From: Candidatus Thorarchaeota archaeon
GTDB lineage: Archaea > Asgardarchaeota > Thorarchaeia > Thorarchaeales > Thorarchaeaceae
Length of the DNA: 64,000 bases
Assembly (NCBI GenBank): GCA_008080745.1
Contig: SHMX01000006.1
Location: 1-64,000 of the forward strand
Direction: 5' to 3'
The position numbers and the translations under genes are program-made. The notes beneath the pieces are model-generated. The model saw only the letters and a list, made by a program, of their open reading frames with translations, was not told the origin of the DNA and did not search any database. Shown here in pieces: positions 11,963 through 57,288 of the stretch (position 1 is the first letter of the stretch; every line of letters starts with the position of its first letter).

Positions 11963-13156
11963 TTGAAAGATTTAGTCATTGTTGGAGCTGGACCTGCTGG
12001 CAGTGTTTGTGCAATGTCCGCAGCTAAATTAGGTCTAGATGTTCTACTTGTGGATAAAACCCAATTTCCACGATTCAAATCTTGTGGCGGAGCATTGTCA
12101 AAGAGAACAAAGAAAAATTTAGGCCCAAAAGGAATCGATGCAATAAACTGTCAAAGTGAGGGCCTAACTGTTTTCTCTCCTAGCTATCACGAAGCGGATT
12201 ATGAAGAGAGAGACTCGCTTAATCTAGTTGTTCGAACTGAGTGGGATCATGCTGTCTTTCTTGATGCTCAGGATGCGGGTGCTGAAACTTTGGAAAACAC
12301 AATGGTAATCGATATTGAACCAAAAAAGACCTTCATAAGAGTACATCTCCAGGAAAAAGACCCAGTCAAAGCAAAGTATGTTGTTATTGCAGACGGAACC
12401 GGTCTACGTTCTTATAAGAAGAAGTTAGGCTTTACACAACCTTATGAATATATGGCCAGAACAGTCTGTGCTGAGAATCCTGTTGATAACCAAATTCTTG
12501 ATGACCATTTTGACGGAAAACGAAAAATTCAACTCTATTTCGGTGTAGTTCCCAGAGGATACGGGTGGGTATTTCCAAAGAGAGGATATCTCAATGTAGG
12601 AATTGGATTCAGTAATGAAGAAATTCCCGATATTTCTCAATTAGAAGTGTTTGATATATTCCTTGCCACTATGAAGAAAAGAGGTGTAGTTCCAGAAGAA
12701 TTTGATGGAAGTACCCGCAAGACCCACCCGGTTCCATTTAAGAAACCTTTTGATCCAATAGGTATTGGAAATATATTACTTGTCGGTGATGCAGGAGGAT
12801 TTGTTTCTCCTGTCACGGGAGAAGGTTTGTATTATGGCACAACAGCCGGGCGGATTGCAGCCGAAACAATCCATCAAGACATAGAGGGAAAACTAAGTGA
12901 CGACTTAGTTTCTACTTACAAAGAGAGATGGATGGAAGATTTCGGAGATGACCTAATCAACAAGGGTTTGTCCCTAGCAAATCTGGTATACAAATCTGTT
13001 CGCAGGATGGAACTATTAGTCAAGATGATGGCATCAGATGAAGAAACTTGTAAAGCAGCAGCAGAGATGATTATGGGTGCGAAGAGCTATGGAGAAGCTC
13101 GGAGTAAAGTATACCGAAGAGCTCCCATCTCGGTATTGAAATCATTACTCTCCTAA
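11963..13156 (+). CDS. Geranylgeranyl reductase family flavoprotein
   Basis: FAD-dependent reductase that saturates isoprenoid double bonds; in archaea this family hydrogenates the geranylgeranyl chains of membrane ether lipids. A Rossmann motif V-G-A-G-P-A-G lies within the first 20 residues, followed by the C-G-G-A-L motif typical of the family. The second FAD motif L-V-G-D-A-G-G-F-V-S-P-V-T-G-E-G lies in the C-terminal third. Length (~397) is normal. I prefer the TTG at 11963 because GGAG lies ten bases upstream and the FAD motif then sits where family members have it. A GTG at 11927, ~27 bases after a TATA box, could give a leaderless start with 12 more residues. Substrate may be lipid or carotenoid-type isoprenoid. 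Confidence 0.85.
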   Translation: MKDLVIVGAGPAGSVCAMSAAKLGLDVLLVDKTQFPRFKSCGGALSKRTKKNLGPKGIDAINCQSEGLTVFSPSYHEADYEERDSLNLVVRTEWDHAVFLDAQDAGAETLENTMVIDIEPKKTFIRVHLQEKDPVKAKYVVIADGTGLRSYKKKLGFTQPYEYMARTVCAENPVDNQILDDHFDGKRKIQLYFGVVPRGYGWVFPKRGYLNVGIGFSNEEIPDISQLEVFDIFLATMKKRGVVPEEFDGSTRKTHPVPFKKPFDPIGIGNILLVGDAGGFVSPVTGEGLYYGTTAGRIAAETIHQDIEGKLSDDLVSTYKERWMEDFGDDLINKGLSLANLVYKSVRRMELLVKMMASDEETCKAAAEMIMGAKSYGEARSKVYRRAPISVLKSLLS

Positions 13157-13764
13157 TAGACAGAGAATCCTGTTGATATTTCTTCAAACAAATGAGGATA
13201 CGTTTCTTTGACCGTAGTGAGATCTATCTCTTGAGGGATGAAGTATACTTGGAATTCGCAGTAGTTGTCACCCGCTGCCCTGCATTTGGTTTCACGACTA
13301 AGAATATTGTATTCACTATCTCGGGTGAGCATACTCCATGTTTGAGCTGCCCCCTGATAAGCTCCTGCTGGAAATTGACAGAACTTGTGAGGGAAAGAGA
13401 TATCTCGGCACCATGGTGAGTCATCGTCAGTAAAGGTGTAGAGATGTGCTTCTTTACCGTCAATCTCGATTTCTTCAAGAGTTTGCTCAGTCGGTTTATG
13501 TCCAGAAAACATAATCCAAGCCGCCTCACCATAAGCAGGAATTCTACCTACGTCGGGTTCTAGATGGGCTGAGAGCTCCATCATAAATTCATGACCTAAT
13601 TGAACTCCACCCTCAAAGACCATCTGAAGACTCTTTTCAGGTCCAACTATATCCAGAAGACTCGTCATGAGAAGATCATTGAGTTTTGTAAGCGTCATAG
13701 TGACTACTTTTTCGCTTCCAAATTTTTTCGCTTTTGAGGCTTGAATAATTAACCAATTTTTCAT
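13153..13764 (-). CDS. V4R-domain protein of the GTPase cassette
   Basis: This 203-residue protein carries in its C-terminal half a V4R (4-vinyl reductase) small-molecule-binding domain. Signs are the G-A-Y-Q-G-A helix and the closing E-T-K-C-R-A-A-G-D-N-Y-C-E-F pattern with its two Cys. V4R domains occur in bacteriochlorophyll enzymes, in signalling regulators and, as relatives, in TRAPP3/Bet3 subunits of vesicle tethering complexes. It is the third gene of a coupled operon: its ATG lies one base after the stop of the CPxC gene, with GGTGG nine bases upstream. Context points to a regulator or partner of the GTPase at 14217-14774. Its stop overlaps by four bases the stop of the convergent flavoprotein gene. 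Confidence 0.75.
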   Translation of the reverse strand: MKNWLIIQASKAKKFGSEKVVTMTLTKLNDLLMTSLLDIVGPEKSLQMVFEGGVQLGHEFMMELSAHLEPDVGRIPAYGEAAWIMFSGHKPTEQTLEEIEIDGKEAHLYTFTDDDSPWCRDISFPHKFCQFPAGAYQGAAQTWSMLTRDSEYNILSRETKCRAAGDNYCEFQVYFIPQEIDLTTVKETYPHLFEEISTGFSVY

Positions 13765-13765
13765 T

Positions 13766-14209
13766 TTATTCTACCACCGTTTTAACAGATTCCAATCTTT
13801 CTAATTTTACAAGCTGCTCGCAGAGTATCTTTACTCTAATAGCAGGAATGTCCAGTATTTGTGCAAGCTCGGCCACACTTTTTTCTCCATCTGCTAGTGC
13901 AACAATTGTAACTTGAGCGTTATCCAAATCATCCAAAGGAACTTTCGTTTGCTTAGGAACAGGTATATGTCTTCTTTGATATTTCTTTGGAGCAGCCTCG
14001 GCTTCTTGAATTCGTTGAACAATATCCGCAGCACTTGTGGCACGAACATTATATGACTTATCAATAAAAACAGTCACAGCGTGTTCAGGAGAGCCATGAG
14101 TCACTAATACAGGAACTGGATTTCTTTGTGCCCCCTGAATTTTTTCTTCGCTGACTTCTATTGTTTCCGTCTTCTTGCAAATTGGACAAGTGAATTGAAC
14201 AGAGGGCAT
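13766..14209 (-). CDS. CPxC protein, GTPase partner family (paralog A)
   Basis: 147 residues starting at the ATG of 14209, eight bases after the stop of the GTPase gene. The N-terminus has F-T-C-P-I-C, a half zinc knuckle, followed by a ~60-residue domain ending in V-F-I-D-K-S-Y-N-V-R. The C-terminal ~55 residues resemble a small helical (winged-helix-like) domain with S-V-A-E-L-A-Q-I-L. The first domain matches the 84-residue protein at 33738-33992 in spacing of the CPxC, a conserved E-E-x-I-x-x-A-x-R-x-P, an H near the middle and V-F-x-D. Both lie directly downstream of a small GTPase gene. Function unknown; an effector or membrane adaptor for the GTPase is a reasonable guess. Confidence 0.7.
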   Translation of the reverse strand: MPSVQFTCPICKKTETIEVSEEKIQGAQRNPVPVLVTHGSPEHAVTVFIDKSYNVRATSAADIVQRIQEAEAAPKKYQRRHIPVPKQTKVPLDDLDNAQVTIVALADGEKSVAELAQILDIPAIRVKILCEQLVKLERLESVKTVVE

Positions 14210-14216
14210 ACAATCA

Positions 14217-14774
14217 CTAATCCCGAGAACTCGTAAGAATCTTACTCTTATCATGAGAATATTCATTTTTGGACTTGATAGCTTGAACAATCCAACGTTC
14301 AAGTTCATCGATATTCTCACCTGTCTTTGAACTCACTTTCAACCAAGGCATGTTATAGCGTTTTGATATTTCAGCAATTTCTGAATCTGATATTTCAGCA
14401 TCCAGATCAGATTTATTTGCTACAAGTATTCGCCCCTTTTTCGGGACATGATCGATGAAATTTATCCATTCTTCAATCTCAACTAGAGAACTATAACGAG
14501 CCAAGTCGATGGTTACCAGACAGACCTTAGAGCCTACTGAGAATTCTTCTTGAAAAGACCGAAATCGATCTTGACCTCCAAGATCAAAGGTAACAACCTT
14601 GAATCTGGATCCATCAATTTCATCCTCCAGCTCACAGGTAGATATGTCAAGGCCAACTGTCATGGTAGATTCAGTATAGGTGCTATCTACGAGTCGAGAT
14701 GCAAGACTAGTCTTCCCGACCCCTCCCGAACCTACGAGTAATAGCTTAGTGATATTAGGGGATTTCTCACTCAC
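14217..14774 (-). CDS. Ras/Rab-like small GTPase (cassette A)
   Basis: Small GTP-binding switch protein, 185 residues from the GTG at 14774. G1 is G-S-G-G-V-G-K-T at 15-22, a Thr of the switch I region follows, G3 is D-L-G-G-Q-D-R-F (where eukaryotic Ras/Rab have D-T-A-G-Q), G4 is N-K-S-D and G5 is S-S-K-T-G-E. No C-terminal prenylation Cys is seen. I choose GTG 14774 because GGTGA lies five bases before it; a TTG at 14816 would add 14 residues. First gene of an operon with the CPxC and V4R genes. It probably controls a membrane or cytoskeletal process as MglA-type or Asgard GTPases do; the exact role is not known. Confidence 0.88.
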   Translation of the reverse strand: MSEKSPNITKLLLVGSGGVGKTSLASRLVDSTYTESTMTVGLDISTCELEDEIDGSRFKVVTFDLGGQDRFRSFQEEFSVGSKVCLVTIDLARYSSLVEIEEWINFIDHVPKKGRILVANKSDLDAEISDSEIAEISKRYNMPWLKVSSKTGENIDELERWIVQAIKSKNEYSHDKSKILTSSRD

Positions 14775-15002
14775 GTTGCTCACCAGGTGGTCGCACGAAT
14801 TGCATCCAGATTGCAAACAAACCGCCTATTAGATATATTGATTTTTTATGGGATGAATGAAGATATCACATACTGTTTCTTTTTTTTCCAGACACAAAGA
14901 TGTAAAATTCCAGATATTAAACTAGGAATTTAATTAGAAGTTTTTTGGCTAGATGGTTACGATATACTATGTCACACTTTGAGTATATTAAGTTGTATTA
15001 GT

Positions 15003-31790: not shown

Positions 31791-31831
31791 TTAAAAAAAA
31801 AAGAGTACCAGAGAGGAGAAATCTGGTACTC
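31791..31831 (-). terminator. Strong terminator closing the GTPase/membrane-protein operon
   Basis: GAGTACCAGA (31803-31812) pairs perfectly with TCTGGTACTC (31822-31831) across a 9-base loop. Read on the minus strand, the stem is followed by about ten T (A run at 31793-31802). It lies 33 bp after the stop of the membrane protein at 31865 and before the next gene's start at 31715, and so bounds the operon. Confidence 0.85.
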
Positions 31832-31864
31832 CAAAGGAGAGAATAACGGACTTCACACGCATCT

Positions 31865-33238
31865 TTACATTGTCTTGGCAATCTTGTCTAGTCTACCTGT
31901 AATAGCCAACCAGAAAATCAGAAAGCTTACTATGGAAAGACCATAGGAGTAGTCTAATCCTGGAAAGGAGATAATCAGAACAGGTAATCGTATTGCAAAT
32001 ACTAGAAAAATTGCTAAACCAAGGCCAAATGGCCTCATTCTGCCGGGAACCTTTTCGTTGCGCATTCGCTTCCAGACACCCATGAACACGAAGGCTGGTA
32101 AAACCATGATCAGTATTGTTAAAATCATGAAAGGCAACAATGACAGAAATACCTCCGATAATGATGTTGGAAACATCATCACCATCATGATAGATATTGG
32201 AGCAAAGACTGCAAGGGGTATTACCGATGGATACCTATAACCAGCTGCCATAAGAGAAGCAATAGCAAGAAAGATGAGGGCATAAGCTGTTAGCAACAAT
32301 TCTAAGTAAAGTCCTGTTTGAAACTCAGAGAAACCAGAAGCTGCAAACATCCCAATGGTATGGCCGAGTGCAAAGAAAATGAAGCTCAACATTAGAATAA
32401 ATGTTGGTATCCTTCTACTTTCAGACCAACGACCGTAGAGATATACACCAGTCCCCATTGCTATGAGAACGGTTAGTGTGCTAAGACTGCCAACTATTAT
32501 GAAATATGGGTTAAATAAGAACCCACTAAGTTGAAGGTTAGCTAGGAACAAGATTGGTCCAGCAAAACTTATTCCATAACCAATCAGCTCTCCCGATATT
32601 TTCTGTTCCGGACGTAGAAATGCAAATGCGACCATTGCAGGTCCCATTAGAACAAGAGAAAGTAGAAACAAAGCGAGATTACCTGTTATGAAATCGATAT
32701 ACATAACCGGCAAACCAGCAATTTGAGTGAACAACATAAAAGCGAGAGCAAAGCTAGTACTCCGTTTTGTAGCCTTTGTAATATAGGTAAAAATAATGCC
32801 TACAAAAAGCAAAATAATCGCAGGGATAAGAGCACCAATGATATAGGTAATCACTGTGATAGTGGGAGAGATTAGTGCTAAATAGAACCCAATTAGAGTA
32901 ATCACAATAGTACTCAAAGGAAGAATGTAGATTCTTCTAGAGTTCAAGATGAGTGCTGATGCGACTCCTAGTAATATGACCTCAATAGCCAGGCCTAGGT
33001 AATAGAGTAAACGAAAATCAAGTAGGAATGCTACATTGGTCAAATCTTCAATATATAAACTGAACACACCCACAGCATAGATCATGAACGCAATAGACAC
33101 GATGTACAAAGGACGAAATGCGCTTCGTTCTTCAACATCAACTTGTTTTGATCGTCTTATACTATACTGAAGGATAATTATGGCAGCAATAACGATTGCT
33201 ACGCCCAGATAGAGTTGTATAACTTCAAATAACGCCAT
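31865..33238 (-). CDS. Polytopic membrane protein of the GTPase operon
   Basis: 457 residues and about 12-13 hydrophobic helices over the whole length, with few charged loops and no soluble domain. I recognise no transporter signature. It is the last gene of the operon GTPase / CPxC / longin-like / membrane protein, 12 bp after the longin-like gene, and is followed by a strong terminator. The protein at 44371-45432 has an N-terminal seven-helix part of similar style fused to a longin-like domain, which suggests that this membrane protein and its neighbour interact. It may be a receptor or anchor for the GTPase system. Confidence 0.7.
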   Translation of the reverse strand: MALFEVIQLYLGVAIVIAAIIILQYSIRRSKQVDVEERSAFRPLYIVSIAFMIYAVGVFSLYIEDLTNVAFLLDFRLLYYLGLAIEVILLGVASALILNSRRIYILPLSTIVITLIGFYLALISPTITVITYIIGALIPAIILLFVGIIFTYITKATKRSTSFALAFMLFTQIAGLPVMYIDFITGNLALFLLSLVLMGPAMVAFAFLRPEQKISGELIGYGISFAGPILFLANLQLSGFLFNPYFIIVGSLSTLTVLIAMGTGVYLYGRWSESRRIPTFILMLSFIFFALGHTIGMFAASGFSEFQTGLYLELLLTAYALIFLAIASLMAAGYRYPSVIPLAVFAPISIMMVMMFPTSLSEVFLSLLPFMILTILIMVLPAFVFMGVWKRMRNEKVPGRMRPFGLGLAIFLVFAIRLPVLIISFPGLDYSYGLSIVSFLIFWLAITGRLDKIAKTM

Positions 33239-33250
33239 GTAAAATCACCT

Positions 33251-33694
33251 TTAAAACACAGTCTTTCCCCATTTACCTGCGGCCTTCTTGGCCTTGTCAA
33301 CCTGTGACTCAGACCATTTTCGAAGTCCTTCTTTGGATTCTTCACTCATAGACATATCATCAGTAACCATTTCTTGTATGAGATCAAGTATTCCTTCGTT
33401 AATGGTTTCATCTTTATCTTTGAGAAGCTGAATTACCTTCTTATTCTGCTCAACAGCATTATTTTCAGATGCTTTATGCAGTGTGATAACATGATACTTC
33501 TCAGATTTTCCGATGAGCAACTTTGTATCTCCAAACTTCAGCTCCTCAATCTCAGAGCCCTCTGATATTCGTCCTATGAACATCTGGATAGCAGATACAA
33601 ATCCGCCAAACATAGCTAGATCGCCTTCGATATGTTCCCAGCCCACTGCTGCTACAGGTTCACCAGCGTGAGTGACTAACATGATACCATTCAT
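33251..33694 (-). CDS. Longin/roadblock-like regulator of the GTPase operon
   Basis: 147 residues. The first ~90 residues read as beta-beta-alpha-beta-beta-beta-alpha: G-I-M-L-V-T-H-A-G-E-P-V-A-A-V-G, a long helix, then E-L-K-F-G-D-T-K-L-L-I and Y-H-V-I-T-L. This is the order of longin and roadblock/LC7 domains, which bind and regulate small GTPases (for example MglB or the Mon1-Ccz1 type). The C-terminal ~50 residues are helical and end in a basic stretch. The gene lies between the CPxC gene and the membrane-protein gene. Assignment is by predicted fold pattern and context. Confidence 0.65.
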   Translation of the reverse strand: MNGIMLVTHAGEPVAAVGWEHIEGDLAMFGGFVSAIQMFIGRISEGSEIEELKFGDTKLLIGKSEKYHVITLHKASENNAVEQNKKVIQLLKDKDETINEGILDLIQEMVTDDMSMSEESKEGLRKWSESQVDKAKKAAGKWGKTVF

Positions 33695-33737
33695 CTAGTA
33701 CTACCTCGGTTTATGACTGTGTAATCGTAAATTGAAT

Positions 33738-33992
33738 TCATAGTGATGACAACCAATCCTTTGTTTTGTCTATTGCATCACTCTCAGCAGCTTTGACTGC
33801 TGCTTCTACATCTCGAACGTGAAATTTTCCATCAACAAAAATCACGAGCTGATGATCTCTCTTACATTTTGTAGTGACCATTGCAGGAAGTCGTTTTGCT
33901 TCTTTTATTGCTGATTCTTCTATTTCTACGTCTACTAAAGTCCCATCACCACAGACAGGGCACTTGAATGGAGTTAACTCTACCTTTCCCAT
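33738..33992 (-). CDS. CPxC protein, GTPase partner family (paralog B)
   Basis: 84 residues with F-K-C-P-V-C near the N-terminus, a second Cys with C-K-R-D-H in the middle, V-I-F-V-D-G-K-F-H-V-R and a C-terminal helix. It matches the first domain of the protein at 13766-14209 in order and spacing. A zinc site could be formed by the CPxC plus the later Cys/His. It sits 54 bp downstream of the GTPase gene. Function unknown; the repeated link to GTPases is the main clue. Confidence 0.7.
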   Translation of the reverse strand: MGKVELTPFKCPVCGDGTLVDVEIEESAIKEAKRLPAMVTTKCKRDHQLVIFVDGKFHVRDVEAAVKAAESDAIDKTKDWLSSL

Positions 33993-34046
33993 CTCAACGA
34001 CCTCCGAATTCTATCAGACACTCCAACAACGGTTTCATCTAAATCA

Positions 34047-34607
34047 CTACTCCATTGATTCAGCAAAAGGGCTGGATGCATCTCTGTCTTTATCGAGGAG
34101 CACCCTAGCAGCTAATTCAAACATCTCATTGATGCCTTCACCAGTTTTGGCTGAAACCTCCACAACTGAAGCACCATATGTATCGGCATAGGTCTGAGCA
34201 TATTCTAAAGAAACACCATCTTCAGTTCGCTCATCGATTTTGTTTCCAACAAACAGAATCTCACATTCTGACGCATTTTCTTTCAGTCTCTTTACCCAAT
34301 CATCTAAACGGTCTAAAGAGAAGGGACGAGTTGCGTCATATACAGCAATAGCAATCTTTGATCCTCTGAAATAATCCGTAACAACGTCTCGAAAACGTGG
34401 TTGGCCTCCTAAATCCCAAAGCATTAGTGTGACGTCTATGCCATCGACCTGAATCTTCTTGTTAGCAAAATTCACTCCGATAGTAATCTTCATATCTTCC
34501 TCAAAACGATCTTCGGTATATCGGAGGGCAATACTGGTTTTTCCTACACCGCCCTCTCCAATGAGTGTGCATTTGAATACCTTGCCAAAACTTCGTGTTG
34601 CTCTCAT
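34047..34607 (-). CDS. Rab/Ras-like small GTPase (cassette B)
   Basis: 186 residues. G1 is G-E-G-G-V-G-K-T at 17-24, the switch I Thr lies in K-I-T-I-G-V-N-F, G3 is W-D-L-G-G-Q-P-R-F, G4 is G-N-K-I-D and G5 is V-S-A-K-T-G-E. The W-D-L-G-G-Q form replaces the W-D-T-A-G-Q of eukaryotic Rab. There is no lipidation Cys at the C-terminus. It is first in the operon with the CPxC, longin-like and membrane-protein genes, so its regulation and membrane recruitment are probably encoded alongside. The related GTPase at 14217-14774 is in a parallel cassette. Confidence 0.9.
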   Translation of the reverse strand: MRATRSFGKVFKCTLIGEGGVGKTSIALRYTEDRFEEDMKITIGVNFANKKIQVDGIDVTLMLWDLGGQPRFRDVVTDYFRGSKIAIAVYDATRPFSLDRLDDWVKRLKENASECEILFVGNKIDERTEDGVSLEYAQTYADTYGASVVEVSAKTGEGINEMFELAARVLLDKDRDASSPFAESME

Positions 34608-34711: not shown

Positions 34712-35509
34712 TTAGTCAGTACCTCCGGATTCACTACTAGTCATGTTAGCATCAATATCTTGAAATCCTTCACTAGAACGAATCAAGATCTCTTTCGTTT
34801 CCTGATATGATCTAACAAAATCATCATCATCTGACAAAAATACCAATGCGACTTGCTCGATTAGATTTGGATGATTTAGGAGGTATTCTGAATCTCCAAC
34901 CAGATGTTCTGCTAATTGTTGTACTGTCGCAGAAAGTAACCGTTCTTGTTCTATGAAAATTTCTTTCAAACGTCTCCGGTCTTTAGGTTTTGGGACTACA
35001 TCCCAACCATGTTTCAAAGTTTCGAGTACTTCCTCCACATCACTCGGAGATACACCCAAGTATTGGGAGATAAAGAATCTGGCAATGCTACGGTAGAATC
35101 TCGCACGAGGTTTCTTCGATCTATATCGAGCATCGCCCAATTGATGCTCCTTTATGAGACCGTGTTCGATCAGCTGATTCAAATGATAGTAACATTGCTG
35201 TTTTGTAGCTTTAAACTCGGGAAAACGCACATGCGCTGCCTCGTGAATCTCAGATACGGTCATCCAAAATCGTCTAGTTGGTGTACTTCGAGTCACATGA
35301 TGGGTTACACTCGTACCATCCTGTAGTGTTTTCTTCCTAACTTCACGTTCGATTTCAAAATCCAGAATACCTTCACAGAGAACACGTAGAATTTTTTGTC
35401 TAAGTGGGTGTTTGAGACTCTCCTCTTGAGCACGGGTCTTGAGACGAAATAATGTCTTTGGTGTATCGTTATTCTGCCACACCAAACTCATTTCCTGTTT
35501 TTGTGCCAT
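34712..35509 (-). CDS. Winged-helix transcription regulator
   Basis: 265 residues. An ArsR-like winged helix occupies ~30-150: H-P-L-R-Q-K-I-L-R-V-L, then F-W-M-T-V-S-E-I, C-Y-Y-H-L-N-Q-L-I-E-H-G-L-I and a basic wing. A ~60-residue insert with T-L-Q-D-G-T sits between the first helix and the recognition helix and is shared with the divergent gene at 35742. The C-terminal ~110 residues are helical and acidic. A 37-bp palindrome lies directly upstream of the ATG and probably covers its promoter, suggesting autoregulation. Confidence 0.75.
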   Translation of the reverse strand: MAQKQEMSLVWQNNDTPKTLFRLKTRAQEESLKHPLRQKILRVLCEGILDFEIEREVRKKTLQDGTSVTHHVTRSTPTRRFWMTVSEIHEAAHVRFPEFKATKQQCYYHLNQLIEHGLIKEHQLGDARYRSKKPRARFYRSIARFFISQYLGVSPSDVEEVLETLKHGWDVVPKPKDRRRLKEIFIEQERLLSATVQQLAEHLVGDSEYLLNHPNLIEQVALVFLSDDDDFVRSYQETKEILIRSSEGFQDIDANMTSSESGGTD

Positions 35510-35532
35510 TAGATAGTCTCCTTTTCAGTCAC

Positions 35533-35569
35533 ACGTTTTTATTAAAATCAATTTTAATAACAAAAACGT
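35533..35569. promoter_or_regulatory. Long palindrome between divergent winged-helix genes
   Basis: ATTAAAAT and its complement ATTTTAAT are joined by CA (core 35539-35560, 10-bp perfect arms), and the flanking ACGTTTTT (35533-35540) pairs with AAAAACGT (35562-35569) after a short bulge. It lies 24-60 bp upstream of the minus-strand ATG at 35509 and overlaps its likely TATA element. A symmetric operator for one or both neighbouring winged-helix proteins is likely. Confidence 0.6.
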
Positions 35570-35741
35570 TATAATATAAGTGTTTTTAATTGGTATAATT
35601 ATTAGTAAACACAGTATTAATTTTTAATTTTTCAATTAAATGGATATTTACTAAATCCTATAGGTTTTTATTGCTGTATGTAATGGTAGACACGTCTATC
35701 GCTATTCTCTGAAAATAATACACCACCACCACACCAAGAGG

Positions 35742-37979
35742 GTGAACAGATATTTGGAAAAATCAAACAACGACGCCCAAAAATTCCCTGATACAGAGAG
35801 AAAAGACTTCATGGTATTGGAAACACGAGAGCAGAGACAGTCACTATATGATCCATTACGAAAAGAGATACTACGAACTCTAGGGCAAGGAATTGAAGAG
35901 TATACTACTGAGGTTCAGAAGTCAGAGGAGACAACCCTAGAGGATGGGATAGTAGTTACTGAAGAAGTCAAAATCACAAAACCAATAACACGTTACTGGA
36001 TGGCGGTTCCTGAGATTGTGAGTCATATCAACGAAGAACATCCGCATCTAGGTCTAAATAATCACAATTGCTATTACCATCTCTACAAACTAGTTGAACA
36101 AAAGTTAGTTGATCAATACCCAGAGAAAAAAGAGAAACGAAAAAAGAAGACTAGAATCCGTGGTATGTATTTCAGAGCAGCAGCCAAGTTCTATGTTCCT
36201 ACAACTTTTGAGATTGCATCCGATATTAGAGAGGAGGATGTACTACCGCCAGAGATAGATGAGCGTCTTGTGGAATTAGCTCAGAAAGTCAAAGACACCA
36301 AAGAACCTCGAGCTATTGAATATGACCTAGAGATAGATAATGAAACCTTTTGGTTCTCAGTGATGATGAGTCTTCATGATGATGGAGAAAGTATAATATC
36401 CGTCGTTAGAGATATCACGGAACAAAAACATGCTCAAGAAGAATTGAGAAAAAGCCAAGAGATGTTGGATCTAGCTCTACGGGGAGCAGATTTAGCACCA
36501 TGGGAGTTCAGTGAAGTAACTAATGAGATTATTTATAGTCAGAAGTATGCAGAAATTTTAGGATATTCATTAAATGAATTACAGAAGAAAATCCCAGATC
36601 CTAGAGATCTTATCCATCCGGACGATATTGAAAAAGTTATGGAAAAATGGGAAGAACATACCAGAGGAGATACTGACTATGTTGCTCTCCAGTATAGAAT
36701 GCGTACAAAAAGTGGGGATTATGTCTGGGTTCAAGATAGAGGAAGAATAGTTGAACGAACACCAGGAGGTCTCATAACAGCAGGAACTATTAGAGATATT
36801 ACCAAACAAAAGCAAATGGAGGAGGCATTGGGAGCAACTGAGGAACGTTACCGAACATTATACGAAAATTTAGCTGATGGGTTGTTCATCATTAACACTG
36901 ACAGAAATATATCATTTTGTAGTCCTCTTGGAGCAAAAATGTTCGGATATTCACAGAATAACTTGATAGGGATGGACTTCTTAGATTTGATATTTCCTGG
37001 TGATAGAGAACGTCTGAGAGCCATTGCTACCCCAAAATCAAAAATATCTGAAATATTATACGATGGATTAGAAGCAAGAGGGTTGAGAAAGAATGGATCT
37101 ATATTTCATTTTCACGCTACGGGCTCAATAGTTAGAGAAGGCAAGGAGGTAACTGGTTATCAGATTCTAGTCAGAGACATCACTGAATTAGTAAAGACAA
37201 GACAGCTTATCCAAGAAGAACGAGACAGAGCTCAGGTATATCTGGATATTGCAGGAACCATATTTCTAGTAATGGATAGAGATGGCTCGATTGCACTTCT
37301 CAATAAGAAGGGTCTCGAAGTCATGGGGTATGAGGTTGAAGATATAATAGGACAACCCTGGTTCAATTTTGTTCCAGAGGATGAGAGGGAAAATGTACGA
37401 GTAGCGTTTCAAAATCTCATGTCTGGAGAAACTGAGCAGATAGATTACGTTGAGAGACCTGTTTTGACCAAAGAAAATGAAGAACGCTTAATTGCTTGGC
37501 ATACCACAATCATCAGAGATAAAGAAGGAAATATTATTGGATTAATCAGTTCGGGCGATGATATTACTGAAAGAAGATGTGCTGAAGAATCCCTCCAGGA
37601 AAGCGAAGCGAGGTTTAGAACTTTAGTACAGAACTCAACTCATGCATTCTTAGTATTTCAAGGAGAACCACCGGAATGTGTCTACGTGAATCCTGCATTC
37701 ATCGAATTTTCAGGATATACCCCCGAAGGGGTGATGAGTGCCTCCTTTGATGAAATCATAGAAATGGTTCATCCGGATGATCAAGAGATAATGCGTAAGA
37801 GAATCCAAGGAGTTATCCGAGGGGAAAGGGAACCCGAACGGGAATTCGAGGTTAGATATAGACATAGAGATGGAAACTTGGTTTATGCTTATGCAAATCC
37901 AAGTAAGGTCGAATATGACGGACAACCAGCATATCAAATCCTATTGGTGGATATCTCTAGATGGAAAAACCATCAATAA
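35742..37979 (+). CDS. Winged-helix domain fused to PAS sensor domains
   Basis: 745 residues. Residues ~25-150 form a winged helix close to that of the divergent gene at 34712-35509 (P-L-R-K-E-I-L-R-T-L, Y-W-M-A-V-P-E-I, C-Y-Y-H-L-Y-K-L). It is followed by part of a PAS domain (~175-228) and four PAS/PAC units (~238-355, ~360-485, ~490-610, ~615-740), each ending in a D-I-T-x-type PAC strand. No kinase, HATPase or output domain follows the last PAS, so this is a one-component sensor that would read signals through PAS and act on DNA. The start is GTG 35742 next to GAGGG; TTG 35754 or ATG 35811 are alternatives. PAS ligands cannot be read. Confidence 0.82.
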   Translation: MNRYLEKSNNDAQKFPDTERKDFMVLETREQRQSLYDPLRKEILRTLGQGIEEYTTEVQKSEETTLEDGIVVTEEVKITKPITRYWMAVPEIVSHINEEHPHLGLNNHNCYYHLYKLVEQKLVDQYPEKKEKRKKKTRIRGMYFRAAAKFYVPTTFEIASDIREEDVLPPEIDERLVELAQKVKDTKEPRAIEYDLEIDNETFWFSVMMSLHDDGESIISVVRDITEQKHAQEELRKSQEMLDLALRGADLAPWEFSEVTNEIIYSQKYAEILGYSLNELQKKIPDPRDLIHPDDIEKVMEKWEEHTRGDTDYVALQYRMRTKSGDYVWVQDRGRIVERTPGGLITAGTIRDITKQKQMEEALGATEERYRTLYENLADGLFIINTDRNISFCSPLGAKMFGYSQNNLIGMDFLDLIFPGDRERLRAIATPKSKISEILYDGLEARGLRKNGSIFHFHATGSIVREGKEVTGYQILVRDITELVKTRQLIQEERDRAQVYLDIAGTIFLVMDRDGSIALLNKKGLEVMGYEVEDIIGQPWFNFVPEDERENVRVAFQNLMSGETEQIDYVERPVLTKENEERLIAWHTTIIRDKEGNIIGLISSGDDITERRCAEESLQESEARFRTLVQNSTHAFLVFQGEPPECVYVNPAFIEFSGYTPEGVMSASFDEIIEMVHPDDQEIMRKRIQGVIRGEREPEREFEVRYRHRDGNLVYAYANPSKVEYDGQPAYQILLVDISRWKNHQ

Positions 37980-56776: not shown

Positions 56777-57193
56777 TTATGGGGTTCTTCGAGTACCTAA
56801 ATAGTAACATCCCGCCATGAATATTAGAATACCAACAAAACCAACTCCAAGATATTGATCTTGCTGGGTTTGCGTGGGAGCAGTAAGCCCAAAAACAAGT
56901 CCAATAGCCAGAATGAGAAATCCAAAGAACATCACGATTCGTCCAGGCCGAGGGTCAAACGCAAGAAAATCAGGGGTATCAGGTTCTGGAGGTTTTTTTG
57001 GTTCTGATGGTTCGAGATCTTTACTGAAAAATCGTTCACCATCTTCCGAAAGTTTTCCATTTAGTTTTCCTTCATCAACAAGACGCTTCAATATAACACG
57101 CACTTCATCAGCAGGTATACCAAGACGACCACTCATAAGTTGAATAGAGCTCATTCGCTCTTGTTCAACCATTTTGATAACTTCTTCTTGCAT
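56777..57193 (-). CDS. Winged-helix domain with two C-terminal membrane helices
   Basis: 138 residues. The N-terminal ~65 residues form a small winged helix (E-E-V-I-K-M-V-E-Q, S-S-I-Q-L-M-S-G-R-L-G-I, L-K-R-L-V-D-E-G-K-L-N-G-K). A Pro/Glu-rich linker (~68-88) leads to two helices (~90-110 and ~117-135). A membrane-anchored nucleic-acid-binding or PCI-type protein is possible. ATG 57193 is chosen; TTG 57202 is an alternative. No family name can be given. Confidence 0.6.
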   Translation of the reverse strand: MQEEVIKMVEQERMSSIQLMSGRLGIPADEVRVILKRLVDEGKLNGKLSEDGERFFSKDLEPSEPKKPPEPDTPDFLAFDPRPGRIVMFFGFLILAIGLVFGLTAPTQTQQDQYLGVGFVGILIFMAGCYYLGTRRTP

Positions 57194-57239
57194 TGGAATC
57201 AAGGTATTCTAGGTAGAACAAGTACCTAAATATAACGGA

Positions 57240-57265
57240 AGAAGCCGCATTCTGTCACGGCTTCT
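57240..57265. terminator. Possible hairpin terminator in a minus-strand gap
   Basis: AGAAGCCG (57240-57247) pairs with CGGCTTCT (57258-57265), 8 bp, with a 10-base loop. It lies just downstream of the broken gene at 57289-57927. The following T content is modest in both directions. Confidence 0.45.
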
Positions 57266-57288
57266 ATTTCTTCAACAAGTGATTTCTA

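What the first reader, a model, noticed from the sequence alone, without database searches (positions are those of the whole stretch)
31791..34607. Second GTPase operon with longin-like regulator and membrane protein
From 34607 to 31865 the order is GTPase, CPxC paralog, longin/roadblock-like protein, 12-13-helix membrane protein, closed by a 10-bp-stem terminator. Compared with the first cassette, the CPxC gene is constant while V4R is exchanged for longin plus a membrane protein. This suggests a modular GTPase signalling system with a shared CPxC core, not described to my knowledge.
Basis: partly seen in the sequence, partly recalled or inferred. Interest (0 to 1): 0.85.

Follow-up and report, generated by a model that had tools for sequence, protein, structure and literature searches.

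The report
Asgard four-gene GTPase signalling operon
This is a real, tightly packed and ancient gene cluster of Thorarchaeota and related Asgard archaea that ties a Ras/Rab-like switch protein to two small partner proteins and a large membrane protein; it looks like a self-contained membrane-linked signalling switch in the microbes closest to eukaryotes and is not described in the papers I could search.

Summary
Confirmed and extended. Window 34607-31865 (- strand) encodes a Ras/Rab-like GTPase, an 84-aa C2CH zinc-ribbon protein ("CPxC"), a longin-fold protein and a membrane protein, ending in a strong hairpin plus T-run. The membrane protein has 15 predicted helices, not 12-13. The same four genes lie together at about 23 loci in 21 genomes: Thorarchaeota plus four genomes of other Asgard families. 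Two gene orders exist, and the CPxC, longin and membrane-protein trees split by order. A diverged paralogous operon of the same layout lies elsewhere in this genome and relatives. The GTPase-CPxC-V4R cassette is also conserved, and another type pairs a ~7TM protein, GTPase and long CPxC. So "modular GTPase system with a CPxC partner" holds in Thorarchaeota. The layout parallels actinobacterial conservons (membrane sensor, roadblock GAP, small CvnC, GTPase), but membership fails: no histidine kinase, and no DUF742 in this CPxC. Most likely role (inferred): a membrane input or anchor controlling a dedicated Ras-like GTPase through longin and CPxC regulators.

The parts
34047..34607 (-). Ras/Rab-like small GTPase, 186 aa; G1 GEGGVGKTS, G3 WDLGGQ (catalytic Gln kept), G4 NKID, G5 SAK; no C-terminal Cys for prenylation
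   Evidence: Pfam Ras 2e-42; best PDB relatives Rab21 and Rab8; alignment A4, 47 invariant columns
33738..33992 (-). CPxC protein, 84 aa: C2CH zinc ribbon (C11, C14, C43, H47 invariant) with conserved C-terminal K..xW motif
   Evidence: alignment A1, 24 sequences, invariant Cys/His; no Pfam family above cut-off
33251..33694 (-). longin-fold protein, 147 aa, with C-terminal helix ending in a conserved Trp motif
   Evidence: alignment A2; AF2 model bbabbbaaa, pLDDT 75; Foldseek zeta-COP 8.6e-5, AP2 sigma, Ragulator, MglB; weak Pfam Fuz/MON1 longin match in 4 of 26 members
31865..33238 (-). 15-helix membrane protein, N-terminus out and C-terminus in, made of two homologous halves (TM1-8 and TM9-15)
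   Evidence: AF2 pLDDT 87; alternating K/R in loops; half-half hhalign E 2.7e-7 in register, above reversed and block-shuffled controls; no Pfam, no significant PDB fold
31793..31832 (-). terminator-like hairpin (10-11 bp stem, 9-nt loop) running into ten T
   Evidence: fold -16.1 kcal/mol, z -5.35
34712..35509 (-). HTH_20/ArsR-like regulator, 265 aa, 104 bp upstream on the same strand; kept at this place in two other genomes (L048, L049); possible fifth gene or regulator
   Evidence: Pfam HTH_20 6.7e-7; conserved placement
14217..14816 (-). cassette-1 GTPase (related module)
   Evidence: Pfam Ras 1.6e-26
13766..14209 (-). cassette-1 CPxC zinc ribbon plus C-terminal wHTH/DUF742-like domain
   Evidence: A5; DUF742 27.3 bits against cut-off 27.0; homologous to the CPxC profile, 8e-13
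13153..13764 (-). cassette-1 V4R protein
   Evidence: Pfam V4R 1.6e-5, below cut-off; conserved next to GTPase-CPxC at L078, L081 (twice) and L095-L100

Best explanation
The four genes are one functional unit: a membrane-anchored switch built on a Ras/Rab-like GTPase. Shown: they form a tight operon kept together as a set across Asgard families, with a paralogous copy of the same layout. Inferred: the 15-helix protein is the membrane input or anchor; the longin protein, shaped like roadblock/longin GAPs, GEFs and coat subunits, binds the GTPase and controls its nucleotide state; the zinc-ribbon CPxC protein is a second regulator or adaptor that fixes GTPase specificity, filling the place CvnC has in conservons; the GTP-loaded GTPase carries the output. 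In the V4R cassette a soluble ligand-pocket domain replaces longin plus membrane protein as the input.
For: Four-gene clusters at about 23 loci in 21 genomes, including G114, G213, G047 and G116 outside the Thorarchaeota family. A second, diverged operon CPxC-small protein-membrane protein-GTPase in this genome and relatives; its membrane protein is homologous to this one (E 1.7e-6 over 362 columns, score 57 against at most 30 in shuffled controls). CPxC, longin and membrane-protein trees all split the two gene orders, type A at 100% support. The longin fold matches known GTPase partners: MglB with MglA, Ragulator, zeta-COP with Arf1. Conservon precedent: the CvnB homologue is a GAP, the CvnC homologue a likely GEF, CvnA a membrane sensor (PMC13343842).
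Against: No binding or activity data, and no complex prediction could be run. The membrane protein has no recognisable sensor or kinase domain and no significant fold match, so 'input' is a guess. Some genomes keep a close GTPase without the other genes nearby (L150, L162, L164, L165), and one copy (L054) has CPxC-longin-membrane protein without a GTPase nearby, so the GTPase may act in trans or the set may be incomplete. CPxC domains elsewhere occur without GTPases.
Confidence: 0.55

Rival explanations
1. Membrane-recruitment or trafficking module: the membrane protein is a docking site, and the longin protein acts like an SRX, AP-sigma or zeta-COP longin that holds the GTPase at the membrane to position other machinery; no external signal is sensed.
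For: Top Foldseek matches are coat-complex longins and Ragulator; the GTPase is Rab-like and lacks a prenylation Cys, so it would need a protein anchor.
Against: A plain docking protein does not obviously need 15 helices duplicated from a smaller module; but the fold matches cannot tell docking from GAP/GEF activity.
Confidence: 0.25
2. The membrane protein is a transporter or lipid flippase whose activity is gated by the GTPase with its two regulators.
For: Polytopic protein with internal duplication, common in transporters; weak PDB matches include LYCHOS (a transporter-GPCR fusion) and MATE/MurJ-type flippases.
Against: Those matches have E above 0.02 and TM-scores of at most 0.35; no transporter Pfam family; no transporter-type motif recognised.
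Confidence: 0.15
3. The genes are neighbours by inheritance only and work in separate processes.
For: GTPase copies without the operon exist; the distribution is patchy (membrane protein in 19 of 47 family genomes).
Against: Conserved adjacency in two different gene orders, in other Asgard families and in a paralogous operon; shared tree splits.
Confidence: 0.05

Closest known systems
Actinobacterial conservons / AGPS (CvnA sensor, CvnB roadblock, CvnC, CvnD GTPase), PMC13343842 and PMC4316618
   Same: Four syntenic genes: a membrane protein, a roadblock/longin-fold protein, a small protein without clear function, and a small Ras-superfamily GTPase; several paralogous operons per genome; the related cassette 1 carries a DUF742-like domain, the Pfam family tied to conservons.
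   Different: The membrane protein has no histidine kinase and has 15 helices; the regulator is of longin topology and not MglB-like by sequence; the small protein is a zinc ribbon; the GTPase scores as Ras/Rab-like; Asgard archaea, not Actinomycetota.
MglA/MglB polarity GTPase and its GAP (Myxococcus)
   Same: GTPase encoded with a roadblock/longin-fold regulator; MglB bound to MglA is among the best fold matches.
   Different: No sequence similarity of the regulator detected; no CPxC or 15-helix membrane protein.
Asgard Thor-Rab, roadblock, longin and TRAPPC3 proteins (PMC10933270)
   Same: Same protein classes in the same lineage; cassette 1 pairs a GTPase with a V4R/TRAPPC3-superfamily protein.
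   Different: That paper states that MK-D1 GTPase genes generally do not lie in operons with roadblock, longin or TRAPPC3 genes; I found no description there of these operons, the CPxC protein or the membrane protein.
Rup group 1 loci (PMC4316618)
   Same: Small GTPase with uncharacterised partners, one membrane-spanning, proposed there as conservon-like.
   Different: Rup group 1 lacks the catalytic Gln, which is invariant here; the partners are different proteins.

Membership tests
Ras superfamily small GTPase (Ras/Rab branch) | G1-G5 motifs and Ras-family profile match | tested here: met
   Pfam Ras 144.8 bits; motifs conserved in 19 orthologues
Rab GTPase (eukaryotic type) | C-terminal prenylation cysteines | tested here: not met
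   C-terminus ASSPFAESME; no CXXC/CC tail in the orthologues aligned
Longin domain | b-b-a-b-b-b-a-a topology without N-terminal helix | tested here: met
   AF2 model of moderate confidence; fold matches
Longin domain | significant sequence-profile match | tested here: inconclusive
   Fuz_longin_1 in 4 of 26 members, best E 0.0015; nothing for the window protein itself
Conservon (AGPS) | CvnA: membrane protein with histidine kinase module | tested here: not met
   membrane protein has no Pfam match and is all membrane helices, with no soluble domain
Conservon (AGPS) | CvnB: MglB-type roadblock protein | tested here: inconclusive
   same fold class (MglB TM about 0.5-0.6), no sequence match
Conservon (AGPS) | CvnC: DUF742 | tested here: not met
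   the window CPxC has no DUF742 match; only the cassette-1 CPxC does, marginally (27.3 against 27.0 bits), with subthreshold background in control genomes
Conservon (AGPS) | CvnD: MglA-group GTPase | tested here: inconclusive
   scores best with Ras/Rab and keeps the G3 Gln; no phylogeny with MglA was run
Conservon (AGPS) | syntenic four-gene set of membrane, roadblock-fold, small and GTPase proteins | tested here: met
   about 23 loci
GPCR/rhodopsin-like 7TM receptor | significant structural match to a 7TM bundle | tested here: not met
   no PDB match at E 0.001 or better; best 0.021

The most novel reading that the evidence does not exclude
A receptor-coupled Ras-type signalling system of Asgard archaea: the 15-helix protein is a duplicated 7-8-helix receptor module that, with a longin regulator and a zinc-ribbon adaptor, sets the nucleotide state of a dedicated Ras/Rab-like GTPase. 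This would be a pre-eukaryotic counterpart of receptor-to-small-GTPase signalling, built from interchangeable input modules (longin plus membrane protein, V4R, or 7TM) around a GTPase-CPxC pair.
Probability: 0.25. Interest if true: 0.9.

Novelty: new variant of a known kind. Interest (0 to 1): 0.7.

Why it matters
Asgard genomes hold dozens of small GTPases, but matching each with its regulators has been called difficult because in MK-D1 they rarely sit in operons with them (PMC10933270). Here the partners are linked genetically across Asgard families, so a specific Asgard GTPase can be tested with its probable regulator, its second subunit and its membrane partner. If the longin protein proves to be a GAP or GEF, it bears on how Mon1-Ccz1, TRAPP and Ragulator-type regulation arose before eukaryotes.

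Tried and rejected
Sequence search of the longin, CPxC and membrane-protein profiles against PDB chains: nothing significant. Rfam and tRNA scans of the window: nothing. Homology between the longin protein and the 124-aa protein at the same place in the paralogous operon: not detected (hhalign 0.1%), only a weak roadblock match for one member (E 0.077). Membrane protein as a GPCR, LYCHOS or MOP flippase: matches not significant. DUF742 in cassette 1 as proof of conservon descent: rejected as too marginal, with subthreshold hits in unrelated control genomes.

Full report
Origin. The window is part of an unnamed 3.16-Mb genome. Its GTDB family corresponds to Thorarchaeota: contigs of family members match records named Candidatus Thorarchaeota in length and content (for example CP070658.1, SDNZ01000121.1, PRDJ01000036.1). 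The genome carries 34 Arf-profile GTPase matches.

Observation. The four ORFs and their order are as reported. Gaps are 54, 43 and 12 bases, each start has a Shine-Dalgarno-like stretch, and the last gene is followed by a hairpin of 10-11 bp running into ten T (-16.1 kcal/mol, z -5.35). The next gene downstream (31715-30495) is a CBS-domain protein and the one upstream (35509-34712) an HTH_20 regulator.

Proteins. The GTPase matches Ras (2e-42); its nearest solved relatives are Rab21 and Rab8, with Thor-Rab 7EZB in the list. The catalytic motifs, including the G3 glutamine, are invariant in 19 orthologues, and there is no prenylation tail. CPxC has nine invariant columns, among them C11, C14, C43 and H47, a C2CH zinc ribbon. 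The longin protein models as b-b-a-b-b-b-a-a-a (pLDDT 75) and matches zeta-COP (8.6e-5), AP2 sigma, Ragulator subunits and MglB bound to MglA. The membrane protein models as 15 helices (pLDDT 87), and loop charges alternate, placing the N-terminus outside and the C-terminus inside. Its two halves are homologous (E 2.7e-7, in register; shuffled controls at best 2.5e-4). It has no Pfam family and no significant PDB fold. CPxC and longin both end in a similar motif with a conserved Trp (hhalign between the tails only E 0.024).

Conservation. The membrane protein occurs in 19 of 47 genomes of the family, and strong matches occur in four genomes of other Asgard families (G047, G114, G116, G213); the weaker hits in G123, G126, G170 and G175 are probably chance. 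At most of its places it lies with CPxC, longin and GTPase; the exceptions are mainly contig ends, plus L054, which has no GTPase nearby. This gives about 23 four-gene loci in 21 genomes. Two orders exist: GTPase first (type A, as here) and GTPase last (type B, which three of the four distant genomes also have). CPxC, longin and membrane-protein trees each put all type-A rows on one side of a branch with 100% bootstrap support; the GTPase tree agrees except that the window's GTPase is unplaced. The only other genome of the same genus held here lacks the membrane protein.

Paralogous operon. CPxC (93-97 aa), a 124-aa protein, a ~460-aa membrane protein and a GTPase lie in that order in this genome at C1:649.6-652.2 kb, in G015 (two loci, one with tandem copies) and in G026; G002, G004, G038 and G039 hold the same kind of locus with one or more members unconfirmed in the fetched stretch. 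The CPxC proteins (E 1e-10) and the membrane proteins (E 1.7e-6 over 362 columns) are homologous to those in the window; homology of the 124-aa protein to longin is not shown.

Other CPxC cassettes. GTPase-CPxC/wHTH-V4R is present at nine loci in eight genomes, the window's included. In 7 of 9 the C-terminal part matches DUF742 at E below 0.1, reaching the curated cut-off in the window copy, but the background in control genomes makes this weak. A further type pairs a ~7TM protein, a GTPase and a 280-307-aa CPxC protein (L075, L084).

Does CPxC need a GTPase? In this genome 5 of 9 CPxC genes have a GTPase within 2.5 kb, 5.4% expected (P 5e-5). But the 75-aa solitary Thor form and most Lokiarchaeia-type CPxC genes sampled have no GTPase beside them. 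CPxC is therefore a common Asgard zinc-ribbon domain of which several subfamilies are dedicated GTPase partners.

Mechanism (inferred). The closest working precedent is the actinobacterial conservon, where the roadblock protein is a GAP, the small CvnC protein a likely GEF and CvnA the membrane sensor (PMC13343842). By analogy the longin protein and CPxC set the nucleotide state of the GTPase and the membrane protein supplies input or anchoring. Membership in conservons fails on the kinase and on DUF742 for this CPxC; the resemblance is one of layout. No paper found in four searches describes the operon, and PMC10933270 states that MK-D1 GTPase genes generally do not lie in operons with roadblock, longin or TRAPPC3 genes.

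Limits. Gene calls outside the window are mechanical ORFs annotated by profiles made here. The genomes are mostly MAGs, so absences may be assembly gaps. Only single-chain models were possible, with shallow alignments made here. The P value for CPxC-GTPase proximity treats the CPxC genes as independent, although some are paralogues.

Noticed in passing
G000:C1:649587-652220 (L073:2688-5321): Diverged paralogous operon CPxC-124 aa-membrane protein-GTPase in the same genome, with overlaps or gaps of only a few bases; tandem copies in G015 (L079).
   Followed up: partly
window 13153-14816: GTPase - CPxC/wHTH (DUF742-like) - V4R cassette, present at nine loci in eight Thorarchaeota-family genomes.
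   Followed up: partly
window 34712-37979: HTH_20 regulator upstream of the operon and a divergent protein with a related N-terminal region and PAS-like sensor layout; the pair is kept at the same place in L048 and L049, so it may regulate the operon.
   Followed up: no
window 34047-34607: The window's GTPase is closer to several GTPases of the other gene order (up to 68% identity) than to most of its own order (52-61%, though 66% to that of G010), while its three partners clearly belong to its own order: possible exchange of the GTPase between operons, weakly supported.
   Followed up: partly
L071, L082, L102, L106: A 75-aa solitary CPxC protein in a conserved neighbourhood (276-aa protein, ABC ATPase), found in most Thorarchaeota-family genomes, not in a GTPase operon.
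   Followed up: no
L109: Four ~280-aa CPxC-domain proteins in a row with multi-helix membrane proteins among and after them in a genome of another Asgard family, no GTPase nearby.
   Followed up: no
L061 (G011) and L060/L094 (G013): Remnants of the operon: a CPxC with an internal TGA and no membrane protein; a second longin gene followed by membrane-protein fragments after an intact copy.
   Followed up: no
L179-L225: Lokiarchaeota relatives of the GTPase are often ~530-600-aa GTPase-containing proteins, frequently with another GTPase gene about 2-4 kb upstream.
   Followed up: no
window 57053-57283: Weak DUF742-like stretch with in-frame stops on the - strand.
   Followed up: no
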